From Halomonas salipaludis (GTDB lineage Bacteria > Pseudomonadota > Gammaproteobacteria > Pseudomonadales > Halomonadaceae): DNA of 64,000 bases. Position 1 is the first letter of the stretch; each line of letters opens with the position of its first letter. The stretch is from positions 372,001-436,000 of the forward strand of contig NZ_NSKB01000003.1 of assembly GCF_002286975.1 (NCBI RefSeq). The letters are read 5' to 3'. This document shows positions 7,150-13,126 of the stretch, piece by piece. The translations under genes were made by a program, and so were the position numbers. The notes beneath the pieces were generated by a model. It ran no database searches, was not told the DNA's origin, and saw only the letters and a program-made list of their open reading frames with translations.

Positions 7150-7191
7150 ATGACGCGTCTCACTTGTTGCATGCTTGAGTGAAGACTATTA

Positions 7192-7206
7192 TGGAAATTA
7201 TTTCCA
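7192..7206. promoter_or_regulatory. IclR/AllR-type operator, site 1 (allE)
   Basis: Perfect 15-bp palindrome TGGAAATTATTTCCA ending 21 bp before the allE start codon. It matches the published consensus for E. coli IclR, TGGAAATNATTTCCA, as I recall it. AllR, the allantoin-pathway repressor, is also an IclR-family protein, so an AllR-like repressor encoded elsewhere is the likely ligand. Confidence 0.75.
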
Positions 7207-7227
7207 ATATTTTCTAGGAGACTGCTT

Positions 7228-8061
7228 GTGAAGCACCGTTCCTACTACGCGCCCCACGGCGGACACCCGCCCCAGACCCAACTGCTCAGCGACCGCGCGG
7301 TATTCACCGAGGCCTATGCGGTGATCCCCAAGGGCGTGTTCGGCGATATCGTCACCAGCAACCTGCCGTTCTGGCATGACACTCGGCTGTGGGTGCTGGC
7401 ACGGCCGCTGTCCGGCTTTGCCGAGACCTTCTCGCAGTACATCATGGAGGTGGCCCCGGGCGGCGGCAGCGAGCGGCCCGAGCTGGACCCGGCCGCCGAG
7501 GGCGTGCTGTTCGTGGTCGAGGGCGAGATGACCCTGACCCTGGCGGGCGAGCGTCACCACATGATGCCGGGCGGCTATGCCTTTATCCCACCCGGCAGCG
7601 ACTGGCAACTGCGCAACGAGTCCGCGGCGCCGGTGCGCTTCCACTGGGTGCGCAAGGCGTTCGAGTTCGTCGACGGCCTCGAGGTGCCGAAGGCCTTCGT
7701 CACCAACGAGAACGATATCGCGCCGGTCGAGATGCCGGATACCGAGGGGCGCTGGGCTACCACGCGTTTCGTCGACCCTGCGGACGTGCGCCATGACATG
7801 CACGTCAATATCGTCACCTTCCAGCCGGGTGGCGTGATCCCTTTCGATGAGACCCATGTGATGGAGCACGGCCTCTACGTGCTTGAGGGCAAGGCGGTCT
7901 ATCACCTCAATCAGGACTGGGTGGAGGTCGAGGCCGGCGACTTCATGTGGCTGCGCGCCTTCTGCCCGCAGGCCTGCTATGCCGGCGGGCCGGGGCCGTT
8001 CCGCTATTTGCTCTACAAGGACGTCAACCGCCATCCGGCGCTGCGACTGGGTAGTCGCTGA
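7228..8061 (+). CDS. allE: (S)-ureidoglycine aminohydrolase
   Basis: A 277-residue bicupin protein resembling AllE (YlbA), which removes ammonia from (S)-ureidoglycine to give (S)-ureidoglycolate. The N terminus KHRSYYAPHGGHPPQTQLLS and the stretch VIPKGVFGDIVTSNLPFW are characteristic. The first cupin spans about residues 60-140; the second, with likely metal ligands in ETHVMEHGLYVLEG and a later conserved AFCPQACYAGG, spans about 175-265. The start is GTG at 7228, with TAGGAG eight bases upstream. It heads the allE-allA pair behind an IclR-type operator. The function depends on allantoate amidohydrolase supplying ureidoglycine. Confidence 0.92.
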   Translation: MKHRSYYAPHGGHPPQTQLLSDRAVFTEAYAVIPKGVFGDIVTSNLPFWHDTRLWVLARPLSGFAETFSQYIMEVAPGGGSERPELDPAAEGVLFVVEGEMTLTLAGERHHMMPGGYAFIPPGSDWQLRNESAAPVRFHWVRKAFEFVDGLEVPKAFVTNENDIAPVEMPDTEGRWATTRFVDPADVRHDMHVNIVTFQPGGVIPFDETHVMEHGLYVLEGKAVYHLNQDWVEVEAGDFMWLRAFCPQACYAGGPGPFRYLLYKDVNRHPALRLGSR

Positions 8062-8089
8062 GACCGAGCAGAGCGCTTTGGATAGCGAG

Positions 8090-8196
8090 AGGCGCCGGGG
8101 ACAGGTCGTAGAGGGGGTTTGCGCCATGGATGGCGCAAGGTAGCGCCCAAGGACGGGTTTATAGCGCCCCCTCGTAGGCCTGTCGCCGGATCAGCC
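8090..8196. repeat. Structured palindromic intergenic repeat, copy 1 (allE-allA gap)
   Basis: An imperfect long hairpin. The outer arms are 8095-8117 and 8167-8189; the inner hairpin is a perfect 9-bp stem, TTGCGCCATGGATGGCGCAA (8119-8138). The outer stem is broken by a 3-nt internal loop whose two strands both read GTA. Related elements occur near 10.8-11.0 kb and 11.84-11.95 kb with compensating sequence changes. It lies inside the presumed allE-allA transcript. It may be a REP/BIME-like element or a non-autonomous mobile repeat. Confidence 0.8.
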
Positions 8197-8259
8197 TCGA
8201 GTGGCGATACTCGCCATTGCGTTGCCATGCACATTAAAGGCCTGGGAAATGGAGTCTAC

Positions 8260-8748
8260 ATGCTGGAACTCAACGCCGCACCGCTGACGCCGGAGGCCTT
8301 TGCGCCTTACGGTGATGTCATCGATACGCGCACCGCGGACTACTTCCATATCAACGCCGGGCGCACCCGCCGCTATCACGACCTGGCCAAGGTCGAGACC
8401 CTGGGTGAGCAGGCGCATGCGCTGATCAGCATCTTCGTCAGCCAGCCGGTGGACGTGCCGCTCGAGCTCGACTTCCTCGAGCGCCACCCCCAGGGCAGCC
8501 AGGCCTTTATGCCGCTGCACCAGGAGCGCTTTATCATCGTGGTCGCTCCGCCGGGGGATAGCATTGACCCTGGCGACGTGCGCGCCTTCGTCACCGACGG
8601 TCGCCAGGGCGTCAATTACCGTGCCGGCACCTGGCACGCCATCCAGTCGGTGCTCGAGCGCGAGGGCGAGTTCCTGGTCGTCGATCGCGGCGGCGCCGGC
8701 AATAACTGCGACGAGTATCCGCTGGCGCTGCGCGTCAGCCTCGACTGA
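8260..8748 (+). CDS. allA: Ureidoglycolate lyase
   Basis: A 162-residue AllA homologue, the enzyme that splits (S)-ureidoglycolate into glyoxylate and urea. It aligns well by eye with E. coli AllA: LTPEAFAPYGDVIDTR, YFHINAGRTRRYHDLAKVE, ERHPQGSQAFMPL, RAFVTDGRQGVNY and FLVVDRGGAGNNC. The start at 8260 is chosen because it matches the family's N terminus and has GGAG upstream; the longer open frame begins inside the palindromic repeat. It follows allE after about 200 bp filled mainly by repeat copy 1. Its product glyoxylate is the substrate of the gcl-hyi-glxR genes that follow, so gene order follows pathway order. Confidence 0.94.
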   Translation: MLELNAAPLTPEAFAPYGDVIDTRTADYFHINAGRTRRYHDLAKVETLGEQAHALISIFVSQPVDVPLELDFLERHPQGSQAFMPLHQERFIIVVAPPGDSIDPGDVRAFVTDGRQGVNYRAGTWHAIQSVLEREGEFLVVDRGGAGNNCDEYPLALRVSLD

Positions 8749-8799
8749 CGCATCAGGTCGCCGCCGAGCATGGCGGTGTCGATCAGCAACTGCTCTAGC

Positions 8800-8823
8800 G
8801 GGTGGGGGGCTTGCCTCCCACCC
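8800..8823 (+). terminator. Terminator-like hairpin after allA
   Basis: GGGTGGGGGGC (8800-8810) pairs with GCCTCCCACCC (8813-8823) with one mismatch and a tight loop, followed by CCTTTGG. It probably ends or attenuates the allE-allA transcript. Confidence 0.55.
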
Positions 8824-8927
8824 CTTTGGCGTGCCCGTCTGAGGGGCGGCCATGAAGCGTTTTTGCCTGTTGTTTCATGGCGATATGCTTGAATAAAAAA
8901 GCCAAATAACCGCTATAAGAGTTTTAG

Positions 8928-8942
8928 TGGAAATATTTTCCA
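8928..8942. promoter_or_regulatory. IclR/AllR-type operator, site 2 (gcl)
   Basis: TGGAAATATTTTCCA, the same TGGAAA-N3-TTTCCA shape as the site before allE, differing from the recalled IclR consensus at one base. It lies just upstream of a possible -35 box and about 80 bp before gcl. Confidence 0.7.
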
Positions 8943-8949
8943 TAAAATA

Positions 8950-8978
8950 TTGACGCCCGTTCGGCGGCGGTCTAGCTT
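8950..8978 (+). promoter_or_regulatory. Possible gcl promoter
   Basis: TTGACG (8950-8955), a 17-bp spacer, then TAGCTT (8973-8978), a weak -10. The adjacent IclR-type operator ends eight bases upstream of the -35 box. Assignment is by eye only. Confidence 0.4.
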
Positions 8979-9020
8979 GGTATGCAACAACCGTTGCTCA
9001 CGTCACTGAGGAGAATCGTC

Positions 9021-10796
<1,776 letters not shown>

Positions 10797-10813
10797 AACC
10801 TGCACACTGACCA

Positions 10814-11003
10814 AGGGGCGCTTGGGACAGGCCGCAGAGGAGGTCCGATTCCAGGGGTGAGGAGCACTGCTCCGAACGGGCTGGCCATGGATGGCCAGCA
10901 CCGGCCCTGCAAGCGGAGCAGGATGCGAGAGCGCCGCAGGGAATCGGTAGCGTACAGGGATGTATTCACAGCGCCTCCTCGCAGGCCTGTCACAAGACAA
11001 GCC
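10814..11003. repeat. Structured palindromic intergenic repeat, copy 2 (gcl-hyi gap)
   Basis: A longer version of the repeat. Outer arms are GGGACAGGCCGCAGAGGAGG (10824-10843) and CCTCCTCGCAGGCCTGTC (10974-10991), with a GCA/GCA internal loop. The inner 9-bp hairpin is GCTGGCCATGGATGGCCAGC (10880-10899). Extra arms not seen in the other copies include CCGATTCC/GGAATCGG and a small hairpin GGAGCAC-TGCTCC at 10861-10873. Confidence 0.78.
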
Positions 11004-11038
11004 CCGAGCAATGACGTACGACCCAACGGAGATTCGAT

Positions 11039-11818
11039 ATGCCCAAGTTTGCCGCCAACCTCAGCATGCTATTTACCGAGGAGGAGTTCCTCGACCGCTT
11101 CGAGGCCGCCGCCCAGGCCGGCTTCAAGGGCGTCGAGTACCTGTTTCCCTACGACTACCCGGCCAGCGAGATCAAGGCCAAACTCGATGCCAATGGCCTG
11201 ACCCAGGTGCTGCACAACCTGCCGGCCGGCGACTGGGCCGCCGGCGAGCGCGGCATCGCCTGCCATCCGGATCGCGTCGAGGAGTTTCGCGCCGGGGTCG
11301 AGCAGGCCATCGACTACGCCACGACGCTGGGCTGCAAGCAGGTCAACTGTCTGGCCGGTATTCAGCCCCAGGGCGTCAGCCAGGAGCAGGCGCGCCAGAC
11401 GCTGATCGACAACCTGCGCTATGCCGCCGACAAGCTCGAGGCGGCAGGCATCCTGCTACTCGCCGAGCCAATCAACACCCGCGACATCCCGGGCTTCTTC
11501 CTCAACCGCACCGAGCAGGCATTGGCGCTGTTCGAATCGGTAGGAAGCGCTAATCTCAAGCTGCAGTACGATATCTACCACATGCAGATCATGGAGGGCG
11601 ATCTGGCCCCGACCATCGAGGCTCATCTGGCGCAGATCGCTCACGTGCAACTGGCCGACAACCCCGGGCGCCATGAGCCGGGAACGGGCGAAATCAACTA
11701 CCCGTTTCTGTTCGCACATCTCGACCGGCTCGGCTACGACGGCTGGATCGGCTGCGAGTACAAGCCGGCCACCACCACCCGTGAGGGCCTGGGCTGGCTG
11801 GATAGCGTGCGCGGCTGA
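11039..11818 (+). CDS. hyi: Hydroxypyruvate isomerase
   Basis: A 259-residue TIM-barrel protein of the xylose-isomerase-like family, closely resembling Hyi (GIP), which interconverts hydroxypyruvate and tartronate semialdehyde. Diagnostic stretches are KFAANLSMLFTE at the N terminus, CHPDRVEEFRAGVEQAI, LLAEPINTRDIPGFFLN (metal-ligand Glu), KLQYDIYHMQIMEGDL and DNPGRHEPGTGEINYPF. A GGAG site precedes the ATG. It lies between gcl and glxR as in enterobacterial allantoin clusters. The intergenic spaces on both sides are filled by copies of the palindromic repeat, so the genes are spaced more widely than a typical operon. Confidence 0.93.
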   Translation: MPKFAANLSMLFTEEEFLDRFEAAAQAGFKGVEYLFPYDYPASEIKAKLDANGLTQVLHNLPAGDWAAGERGIACHPDRVEEFRAGVEQAIDYATTLGCKQVNCLAGIQPQGVSQEQARQTLIDNLRYAADKLEAAGILLLAEPINTRDIPGFFLNRTEQALALFESVGSANLKLQYDIYHMQIMEGDLAPTIEAHLAQIAHVQLADNPGRHEPGTGEINYPFLFAHLDRLGYDGWIGCEYKPATTTREGLGWLDSVRG

Positions 11819-11835
11819 AGACGCCGCGCGAAGCG

Positions 11836-11946
11836 AGGGGCGCCGGGAGCAAGGCCGAAGAGGAGGTTCGACGCCATGGATGGCGTCGGTAGCGCCCAGG
11901 GAGGGGTTTACAGCGCCTCCTCGAAGGCCTTGCTGCCGGATCAGCC
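11836..11946. repeat. Structured palindromic intergenic repeat, copy 3 (hyi-glxR gap)
   Basis: The outer arms are 11843-11866 and 11916-11939 (20 of 24 positions pair), with a GAA/GAA internal loop. The inner 9-bp hairpin is CGACGCCATGGATGGCGTCG (11869-11888). The element ends with CCGGATCAGCC, shared with copy 1. Confidence 0.8.
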
Positions 11947-12016
11947 CCGTGCGGTGACGTTATCTGCCAAAGTCTTCTGCCCGAGATGACAACGACAGTT
12001 CAGATGGAGACATAGT

Positions 12017-12904
12017 ATGAGCAAGATCGGATTTATTGGCCTGGGTATCATGGGCCGCCCCATGGCCGGCCACCTGCTGGATGCCGGCCACCAGATCGTC
12101 AGCGTCGAACACGGCAAGCCGATTCCCCAGGAGCTGGCCGACAAGGGGGCGACGGTCGCTGCCAACCCCAAGGCGGTCGCCGAGCAGGCCGAGGTGATCA
12201 TCACCATGGTGCCGGACACCCCGGACGTCGAGCTGGTGCTGTTCGGCGAGGGCGGCGTGATCGAAGGCCTCAAGCCCGGCACCCTGGTGATCGACATGAG
12301 CTCGATTGCACCGATCGCCACCCAGGACTTCGCCAAACGCATCCATGACGCCGGCGGCGAATACGTCGATGCCCCGGTTTCCGGCGGCGAGGGCGGCGCC
12401 ATCAACGCTGCCTTGACCATCATGGTGGGGGCCACGGCGGAAGGCTTCGAGCGCGCTCTGCCCATCCTCGAGGTGATGGGCAAGACCATTACCCATATCG
12501 GCGACCACGGCGCCGGCCAGACCTGCAAGGTCGCCAACCAGATCGTCGTCGCGCTGACCATCGAGGCGGTGGCCGAGGGCTTGCTGTTCGCCTCCAAGGC
12601 CGGTGCCGACGTGGCCAAGGTGCGCGAGTCGCTGCTCGGTGGCCTGGCCCAGTCGAAGATCCTCGACGTGCACGGCGAGCGCATGATCAAGCGCACCTTC
12701 GACCCCGGCTTCAAGATCAAGCTGCACCAGAAGGATCTTAACCTGGCGCTGGAGGGCGCGCGCAGTCTCAAGCTGTCGCTACCGGGGACCGCCAACGCCC
12801 AGCAGCTGTTCCAGGCCTGTGCCGCCCACGGCGGTGACGACTGGGATCATGCCGGTATTCTGCGCGCCCTCGAGCAGCTCGCCGATCACGAAATCGGTAG
12901 CTGA
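12017..12904 (+). CDS. glxR: Tartronate semialdehyde reductase (2-hydroxy-3-oxopropionate reductase)
   Basis: A 295-residue beta-hydroxyacid dehydrogenase that reduces tartronate semialdehyde to D-glycerate. It shows the N-terminal Rossmann motif GFIGLGIMGRPMAGHL (about 5-20), the substrate-binding DAPVSGGEGGA (about 118-128), the catalytic lysine K171 in CKVANQIVVA, and the C-terminal FKIKLHQKDLNLAL. GGAG precedes the ATG. Context after gcl and hyi makes GlxR more likely than the closely related galactarate-pathway GarR. Its product glycerate is the substrate of the kinase downstream, which is separated by an intrinsic terminator and so is probably a distinct transcript. Confidence 0.94.
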   Translation: MSKIGFIGLGIMGRPMAGHLLDAGHQIVSVEHGKPIPQELADKGATVAANPKAVAEQAEVIITMVPDTPDVELVLFGEGGVIEGLKPGTLVIDMSSIAPIATQDFAKRIHDAGGEYVDAPVSGGEGGAINAALTIMVGATAEGFERALPILEVMGKTITHIGDHGAGQTCKVANQIVVALTIEAVAEGLLFASKAGADVAKVRESLLGGLAQSKILDVHGERMIKRTFDPGFKIKLHQKDLNLALEGARSLKLSLPGTANAQQLFQACAAHGGDDWDHAGILRALEQLADHEIGS

Positions 12905-12914
12905 GCCTCGCGCC

Positions 12915-12937
12915 TCGCCGAGGGGCGCTAGAACAGG
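12915..12937. repeat. Truncated left end of the palindromic repeat
   Basis: GAGGGGCGCTAGAACAGGG matches the left boundary of the three full repeats (AGGGGCGC then ACAGG), but the rest of the element is absent. It appears to be a degenerate or truncated copy just after glxR. Confidence 0.45.
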
Positions 12938-13011
12938 GAGTGCGCAAGCGCTCCGCATGAGTTGGCAGGCGTCGGGTCGTCGTCTGCCATCGCCACGGCA
13001 TGTGGCCTTCC

Positions 13012-13061
13012 ACCGGTGACAGGTGCCCCCCTGCGACATGTGGCTTGTCACCGGTTTTTTT
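13012..13061 (+). terminator. Intrinsic terminator after glxR
   Basis: Perfect 10-bp stem ACCGGTGACA (13012-13021) / TGTCACCGGT (13046-13055) followed by a run of seven T. It should end the gcl-hyi-glxR transcript. Confidence 0.88.
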
Positions 13062-13126
13062 GCTTCCCCGATACGCGATCCCGCTTTCACTTGCGACGCG
13101 CGCTGCGTGCTGTGAGGAGTTGACCG

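What the first reader, a model, noticed from the sequence alone, without database searches (positions are those of the whole stretch)
8090..11946. Palindromic intergenic repeat with covarying stems and a symmetric GNA/GNA internal loop
Three elements lie in consecutive gaps (allE-allA, gcl-hyi, hyi-glxR). Each has an inner hairpin with an exact 9-bp stem around a GG loop, but the stem sequence differs: TTGCGCCAT, GCTGGCCAT, CGACGCCAT, each with its exact complement. The outer stems also change on both arms (GACAGG/CCTGTC against GCAAGG/CCTTGC). The outer stem is interrupted at the same place in all three by a 3-nt internal loop whose two strands are identical within a copy: GTA/GTA, GCA/GCA, GAA/GAA. 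This would form G-A, N-N, A-G mismatches, a pattern kept while N changes. Sequence drift with structure kept indicates selection on the fold, as DNA or RNA. A truncated left end lies at 12915-12937. I do not know a described family with this symmetric loop.
Basis: seen in the sequence. Interest (0 to 1): 0.8.

Follow-up and report, generated by a model that had tools for sequence, protein, structure and literature searches.

The report
Repeated RNA hairpins likely binding CsrA
Three folded repeats between metabolic genes belong to a family of about a hundred dispersed copies in this bacterium whose RNA copy would carry two hairpins matching the docking site of CsrA, a global gene regulator, although binding has not been shown.

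Summary
The three palindromic elements are real and belong to a dispersed family with 105 model matches in this Halomonadaceae genome. A broader model finds relatives in 126 of 293 genomes of the order and 56 of 323 of the class, own genome included. Each element is a long stem enclosing two hairpins. In 89 copies from other genomes the stems change compensatorily (1162 two-sided changes, 314 shuffled) while both loops keep A-N-GGA (86 of 89; 57 of the 58 not used to build the model) with the N free: the ANGGAN hexaloop of CsrA/RsmE. In stems found strand-neutrally, G·U outnumbers A·C 53:10 on the GGA strand, pointing to RNA. Known relatives: Rfam TwoAYGGAY, predicted in print to bind CsrA, and Yersinia YPAL (shared 25-mer). 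The GNA/GNA loop is a lineage feature; its identical-strand rule is chance (10 of 86). REP/RAYT is not supported. Against a simple mRNA role: sense orientation prevails here (61:18) but not outside the family (36:39), and antisense copies keep their loops. CsrA binding is untested.

The parts
8083..8206 (+). Element 1, short form, between ureidoglycine aminohydrolase and ureidoglycolate lyase genes
   Evidence: R1 140.2 bits; fold z -5.5
8119..8138 (+). Hairpin 1 of element 1; loop octamer CATGGATG at 8125-8132
   Evidence: sequence; octamer position
8140..8162 (+). Hairpin 2 of element 1; loop octamer CAAGGACG at 8148-8155
10809..11013 (+). Element 2, long form with an extra branched inner arm, between gcl and hyi
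   Evidence: R1 79.8 bits; fold z -5.7
10886..10893 (+). CATGGATG loop octamer in the inner arm of element 2
10952..10963 (+). GTACAGGGATGT in hairpin 2 of element 2: exact match to the 12-nt CsrA SELEX consensus RUACARGGAUGU (consensus from PMC4347634, passages)
11831..11956 (+). Element 3, short form, between hyi and glxR
   Evidence: R1 125.5 bits; fold z -6.2
11875..11882 (+). CATGGATG loop octamer, hairpin 1 of element 3
11897..11904 (+). CAGGGAGG loop octamer, hairpin 2 of element 3
7228..8061 (+). (S)-ureidoglycine aminohydrolase gene, upstream of element 1
   Evidence: NCBIfam NF008373 541 bits
8260..8748 (+). ureidoglycolate lyase gene
   Evidence: NF009932 195.5 bits over cut-off
9021..10796 (+). 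glyoxylate carboligase gene (gcl)
   Evidence: TIGR01504 1190.9 bits
11039..11818 (+). hydroxypyruvate isomerase gene (hyi)
   Evidence: TIGR03234 421.7 bits
12017..12904 (+). 2-hydroxy-3-oxopropionate reductase gene (glxR)
   Evidence: TIGR01505 386.5 bits

Best explanation
The element is a dispersed intergenic repeat whose GGA-bearing strand acts as RNA. Transcribed, here most often as the 3' untranslated or intercistronic part of the mRNA of the gene just upstream, it folds into a long stem that closes a three-way junction and presents two hairpins, each with an ANGGAN hexaloop closed by C-G. I infer that one CsrA/RsmA dimer clamps both hairpins. The two octamers are separated by a median of 15 nt, within the 10-63 nt bridging range but below the stated optimum of over 18. 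Each copy could thereby place an mRNA under CsrA control or protect its 3' end, and the copies together could compete for CsrA like CsrB/RsmZ sponges. Shown: copy number, architecture, covariation, loop conservation, an RNA-strand signal (outside this bacterial family), an intact csrA gene. Inferred: transcription of these copies, CsrA binding, any effect on mRNA or on free CsrA, and how the repeat spreads.
For: 105 model matches in this genome, none inside a gene called by my codon-usage caller. Structure: A4 (33 copies) 95.2% of cells paired, 271 two-sided changes against 59 shuffled; A6 (89 copies, 73 loci in other genomes, 31 of them training copies of R2) 91.2%, 1162 against 314; the 58 untrained copies alone pair at 89.4%. 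Loops: ANGGA in hairpin 1 in 87, hairpin 2 in 88, both in 86 of 89 (57 of 58 untrained), among the most conserved columns although stems differ; the N positions take all four bases. ANGGAN hexaloops and bridging at 10-63 nt: PMC7652899, passages. Two closed hexaloops are present in 82 of 89 (A6), 90 of 92 (A8) and 85 of 94 (A7) copies, and lie 10-63 nt apart in 81, 90 and 85 of them. Exact SELEX consensus in the window at 10952-10963, in 1 of 105 copies here and 21 of 181 elsewhere. Strand test: G.U 53 against A.C 10 (p 3e-8) in arms found with a Watson-Crick-only rule. One csrA gene. 55 of 56 element-bearing genomes of the class sample have CsrA against 231 of 267 without a match (lists compared by eye; Fisher p 0.01). 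Sense bias here 61:18. The related TwoAYGGAY family was already predicted to bind CsrA (PMC4333381, passages).
Against: No sense bias outside the bacterial family (36:39); a first cross-genome sample that mixed family members and others gave 32:34. Antisense copies here keep both loops as often as sense copies (15 of 16 against 54 of 58, solo palindromes left out). At gaps occupied in both this genome and its congener G002 the orientation is the same in 10 and opposite in 9 of 19 listed matches, one gap counting twice because G002 has two copies there; over all genome pairs compared it is 24 and 15 of 39. The strand test has no power inside the family (2:3; 7:2, p 0.18), and a strand-biased mutation process would mimic it. 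R1 and R2 themselves prefer GGA loops, so loop conservation is partly ascertained. CsrA co-occurrence is confounded by phylogeny and has one exception (G494, a draft with 8 R2 matches). The median spacing of 15 nt is under the stated optimum. 6 of 105 matches lack the inner domain. The exact SELEX word is rare (1 of 105 here). I had no transcription or binding data.
Confidence: 0.58

Rival explanations
1. A purely DNA-level mobile palindrome (YPAL-type MITE): an unidentified enzyme recognises the two hairpins as single-stranded DNA, and the ANGGA loops are its mark. Any resemblance to CsrA sites is incidental.
For: High copy number and intergenic placement; no orientation bias outside the family; loops kept in antisense copies; in G225, G262 and G530 a near-identical core sits in palindrome arms of 21-56 nt (0-4 mismatches) that differ from copy to copy; YPAL is described as recently mobile, with target duplications of 3-26 bp (PMC2229807, passages).
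Against: The G.U excess over A.C on the GGA strand (53:10) is not expected for DNA; the freely varying N positions match CsrA specificity; the one enzyme looked for, a Y1 transposase, has its own different repeats. No wider search for a mobilising enzyme was made.
Confidence: 0.22
2. An orientation-independent stem that protects mRNA 3' ends or helps termination (as proposed for REP/BIME and other palindromes), with no role for CsrA.
For: Among copies in other genomes with one gene 3' end and one 5' end as neighbours, the median distance is 32 nt to the 3' end and 96 nt to the 5' end, and 100 of 128 are closer to the 3' end; outer stems are long; the element stays in the same gap while its orientation differs.
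Against: Does not explain why ANGGA loops are kept while stem sequences change, nor the strand asymmetry of wobble pairs.
Confidence: 0.15
3. A REP/BIME family spread by a REP-associated tyrosine transposase (RAYT), as the first reader suggested testing.
For: One Y1_Tnp match in the genome, in a 154-aa RAYT-like open frame.
Against: That gene's locus holds 7 REP-like words with the core GGAGCGGCTT; the corresponding REP pattern occurs 0 times in 424 kb of fetched DNA round the elements, and the element's core word is absent from the RAYT locus. The element is about 124 nt, not 20-40.
Confidence: 0.02

Closest known systems
TwoAYGGAY RNA (Rfam RF01731, clan CL00106)
   Same: Long outer stem and two adjacent hairpins with GGA loops (alignments). 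R1 also hits 10 of the 12 RF01731 loci fetched, in G019, G030, G055 and G056, and R2 and RF01731 hit the same two places in L149. Predicted CsrA-binding in print (PMC4333381, passages).
   Different: RF01731 finds 0 matches in this genome at E<=0.01 (39 of 242 candidates scored) and nothing in window 7900-13100 at E<=10. Two of its 12 fetched loci (L131, L133) are not R1 hits. Loops here are ANGGAN, often AGGGAN, not AYGGAY. The main text of PMC4333381 holds neither 'copies' nor 'dispersed'.
YPAL / RU-2 (Yersinia palindromic sequence)
   Same: Intergenic palindrome; the printed RU-2 sequence (PMC2759123, passages) holds two GGA hairpins in the same order and shares the 25-mer AGCCTACATGGATGTATTTACGGCG with two copies in G272.
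   Different: 168 nt against about 124; outer arms differ. CsrA and RsmA occur 0 times in the main texts of PMC2229807 and PMC2759123.
CsrB/CsrC/RsmX/Y/Z sponge RNAs
   Same: Several GGA hairpins that would bind CsrA.
   Different: Those are single dedicated small-RNA genes (recalled); here there are about a hundred dispersed copies, mostly with two sites each.
REP/BIME with RAYT
   Same: Dispersed intergenic palindromes.
   Different: Length, tag and the repeats at the RAYT locus do not fit.

Membership tests
TwoAYGGAY (RF01731) | Covariance-model score over the gathering cut-off | tested here: not met
   0 matches in own genome at E<=0.01, 39 of 242 candidates scored with stricter filters; none at E<=10 in window 7900-13100. 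6 of 58 genomes have a match, 2 of 58 over the cut-off.
TwoAYGGAY (RF01731) | Two adjacent hairpins with AYGGAY loops inside an outer stem | tested here: inconclusive
   Architecture met; the second loop base is any of A, C, G, T, so the Y rule is not met.
YPAL/RU-2 | Sequence homology to RU-2 | tested here: inconclusive
   Met for relatives in G272 (shared 25-mer); for this genome the link is only through the common model and a weak antisense Ysr224 match (22.5 bits, E 0.097).
YPAL/RU-2 | Target-site duplications of 3-26 bp | tested here: inconclusive
   Empty or altered sites in related genomes showed deletions and rearranged gaps, no clean duplication seen by eye.
CsrA-binding RNA | ANGGA in hairpin loops, in pairs | tested here: met
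   86 of 89, 57 of 58 copies not used for the model; two or more CANGGANG octamers in 81 of 89 (A6) and 90 of 92 (A8).
CsrA-binding RNA | Binding by CsrA | not testable with these tools
   No binding data; csrA gene present.
REP/RAYT | 20-40 bp GTAG-tagged palindrome linked to a RAYT | tested here: not met
   Element about 124 nt; the RAYT locus carries different REPs.

The most novel reading that the evidence does not exclude
A mobile RNA-encoding repeat, spread through Gammaproteobacteria and present in about a hundred copies in this genome, that carries the docking site of the host's global regulator CsrA. It would rewire mRNAs into the Csr network wherever it lands and, as a crowd, set the level of free CsrA. 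YPAL, TwoAYGGAY and this Halomonadaceae repeat would be branches of it. In some lineages each copy also sits in its own near-perfect palindrome, hinting at an undescribed way of spreading.
Probability: 0.33. Interest if true: 0.9.

Novelty: new variant of a known kind. Interest (0 to 1): 0.66.

Why it matters
If the RNA binds CsrA, a global post-transcriptional regulator would have up to about two hundred extra sites in one genome, supplied by a repeat and not by dedicated sponge RNAs. That would link repeat spread to regulatory evolution, offer an explanation for palindromes so far described as MITEs, and give TwoAYGGAY a wider host range and a test bed. The prediction is simple to test in a non-pathogenic halophile.

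Tried and rejected
Symmetric GNA/GNA loop as the signature: rejected as general. RAYT/REP: rejected. Rfam at gathering threshold: no match in the window. Inversion in place as the cause of flipped orientation: the flanks are not cleanly collinear in the 9 pairs looked at, and at window site 1 G001 and G004 look by eye like products of differential loss from a paired locus, so left open. Target palindrome or inverted flank duplication as origin of the copy-specific arms: the one clear empty site (in G225, a gap that looks like hisH/hisA by eye) holds no trace of the arms; G640 sites were too diverged, R2 finding none there at E<=1. Replichore rule for strand: strands look mixed along the G002 places listed, by eye, not tested. 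Viral contigs: 0 matches to the core pattern. Paper searches for a link between dispersed repeats and CsrA; none seen in the listings, which were partial (20 of 70 papers, 6 of 6, 8 of 8, 10 of 210, 6 of 6, 8 of 68, 8 of 21), in a library that lacks most subscription papers.

Rows dropped: L078:2003-2126:+ and L074:2003-2126:+ (opposite-strand echoes) from the A7 counts; copies under 90 nt from loop counts on A7; long forms, short matches and arms scoring under 8 from the strand test (in one search, A6 78 of 89, A8 79 of 92 and A7 48 of 103 copies used; one search applied the same rule to A6 and A8). One search's A7 line (81 of 105) still holds the two echoes and the solo forms. In one search only pairs that are mostly Watson-Crick were counted (34-36 of 41). 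One search crashed after printing the short derivatives and was redone.
Full report
WHAT IS THERE. The window carries three elements on the + strand: 8083-8206, 10809-11013 and 11831-11956. They lie between genes for ureidoglycine aminohydrolase and ureidoglycolate lyase, glyoxylate carboligase and hydroxypyruvate isomerase, and hydroxypyruvate isomerase and 2-hydroxy-3-oxopropionate reductase. The flanking genes run the same way, and the elements start 21, 12 and 12 nt after the stop codon upstream. Each folds much better than its shuffles. The middle one is a long form: its inner arm is enlarged and branched and carries a CATGGATG hairpin. By a word test, 26 of the 105 matches in the genome are long forms.

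COPY NUMBER. A 30-nt core pattern with up to 3 mismatches hits 56 places in the genome against 0 for the reversed pattern. A covariance model (R1, 19 short copies) finds 105 places at E<=0.01, with only 150 of 4544 candidates scored, so more may exist. My codon-usage gene caller places all 105 between genes; in other genomes a few fall inside a called gene (1 of 89; 3 of 72 family members). Six of the 105 are solo outer palindromes without the inner domain.

STRUCTURE. R1 hits 28 of 58 genomes (own included) at E<=0.001. From these I built R2 (33 copies). On that alignment 95.2% of cells pair, 38 of 41 pairs change on both sides, and 271 cells are two-sided changes against 59 in shuffles and 36-64 in slid controls. 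R2 hits 126 of 293 genomes of the order (61 of 118 genera) and 56 of 323 of the class, own genome included, both at E<=1e-4 with stricter filters and at most 12 or 10 candidates scored per genome. An alignment of 89 copies from 73 loci in other genomes gives 91.2% paired and 1162 two-sided changes against 314 shuffled and 198-268 in slid controls. 31 of the 89 were training copies of R2; the other 58 alone pair at 89.4%. These alignments are fitted to the model, so the counts lean towards it; the slid controls do not show the effect.

THE CONSERVED PART. In those 89 copies the most conserved columns are the C-A, the G-G-A and the closing G of both hairpins, with a short AG...GCG motif at the junction. 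ANGGA stands in hairpin 1 in 87, in hairpin 2 in 88, in both in 86, and in both in 57 of the 58 untrained copies. The base between A and GGA and the base after GGA take all four values. The innermost A of hairpin 1 is kept although its would-be partner varies, so the loop behaves as the hexaloop ANGGAN. A review describes this as the RsmE/CsrA target: a hairpin with an ANGGAN hexaloop whose A and GGA are contacted and whose N are variable; it also says that one dimer can bridge two sites 10-63 nt apart, with an optimum over 18 nt (PMC7652899, passages). Here the octamers are separated by a median of 15 nt. Hairpin 2 of the middle window element contains GTACAGGGATGT, an exact match to the SELEX consensus RUACARGGAUGU (PMC4347634, passages). 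Exact matches are found in 1 of 105 copies here and 21 of 181 elsewhere. In the 64-kb window only 4 CANGGANG hairpins with at least 3 further Watson-Crick pairs exist on the + strand, and 3 of them are in the elements; the - strand has none.

RNA OR DNA. Read on the GGA strand, a C-to-T change in a G-C pair leaves G.U, which RNA tolerates; a G-to-A change leaves A.C, which would be G.U only on the other strand. In arms of copies from other genomes found by a Watson-Crick-only, strand-neutral rule, G.U outnumbers A.C 53:10 (p 3e-8), alike in copies sense (18:2) and antisense (20:3) to co-directional neighbours. The signal comes from outside this bacterial family (51:7); inside it the test has no power (2:3; 7:2, p 0.18, in this genome). 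With the model's own alignment the ratios are 72:26 (A6), 65:23 (A8) and 90:48 (A7, this genome), but those lean to the model. A strand-biased mutation process is not excluded.

ORIENTATION. In this genome copies between co-directional genes are sense 61 times and antisense 18 times (p 1.3e-6). Copies from other members of the family give 36:17 (p 0.013), copies from genomes outside it 36:39. Antisense copies here keep both loops as often as sense ones (15 of 16 against 54 of 58). Between this genome and congener G002, 19 matches at shared occupied gaps show the same orientation 10 times and the opposite 9 times, one gap counting twice. At the three window sites among four congeners: site 1 is + in G002 and G003, - in G004 and, by eye, reduced to a short palindrome in G001; site 2 is + in all four, long in G001 and G003 and short in G002 and G004; site 3 is - in G001, G002 and G004 and absent in G003. 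These results weaken the idea that every copy works in the mRNA of its neighbour; they fit a mobile element with an RNA stage or an RNA product of its own at least as well.

RELATIVES IN PRINT. Rfam TwoAYGGAY has the same plan; R1 also hits 10 of its 12 fetched loci, in G019, G030, G055 and G056, and R2 and TwoAYGGAY hit the same places in L149; it does not match this genome. One paper predicts that TwoAYGGAY binds CsrA (PMC4333381, passages). The Yersinia YPAL/RU-2 repeat, printed in PMC2759123 (passages), carries both hairpins in the same order and shares a 25-mer with two copies in G272; the Rfam family Ysr224 is its reverse complement (105 of 107 identical). De Gregorio et al. 2006 was not read; I rely on PMC2229807 (first of three parts and passages). 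I saw no paper that links a dispersed repeat to CsrA in the partial listings of searches, and CsrA is not mentioned in the main texts of PMC2229807 and PMC2759123.

CSRA. One csrA gene is present. In the class sample 55 of 56 R2-positive genomes and 231 of 267 R2-negative ones have CsrA (lists compared by eye; Fisher p 0.01, not corrected for phylogeny). G494 is the exception, a draft of about 270 contigs with 8 R2 matches.

VERDICT. A real, abundant and structurally selected family whose signature is a pair of CsrA-type hairpins. CsrA binding is the best single explanation (0.58) but is untested, and the orientation pattern outside Halomonadaceae is unexplained.

Noticed in passing
L221-L238 (G225, G262) and L252-L259 (G530): A near-identical core of about 52-64 nt sits at the centre of palindromes whose 21-56 nt arms (0-4 mismatches) differ from copy to copy. 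The origin of such copy-specific arms is unexplained.
   Followed up: partly
L145, L148, L149, L150, L157, L160, L162, L169, L174, L136, L240, L242, L255, L258, L259: Two copies in divergent (-,+) order, 34-416 bp apart, recur outside the bacterial family.
   Followed up: no
Rfam RF02770 (Ysr224) against RU-2: The Rfam family Ysr224 is the reverse complement of a YPAL/RU-2 copy, 105 of 107 positions.
   Followed up: yes
L031 1429-1893 and flanks: A RAYT-like gene with 7 REP-like words (GGAGCGGCTT core, preceded by GTA or GTG) around it, unrelated to the element.
   Followed up: partly
window 7189-7209 and 8925-8945: Two near-palindromic TGGAAAT...TTTCCA boxes ahead of the ureidoglycine aminohydrolase and gcl genes, possibly operator sites of an allantoin regulator (recalled, untested).
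   Followed up: no
L257 3419-3543 and the matching gap in G640 contig C71: By eye, the gap in G640 (flanks 70-72% identical) seems to hold another two-hairpin GGA element with different stems, though R2 did not score it at E<=1.
   Followed up: no
L113, L115, L108, L119, L120, L125: Solo outer palindromes of 62-72 nt that lack the two-hairpin domain.
   Followed up: partly
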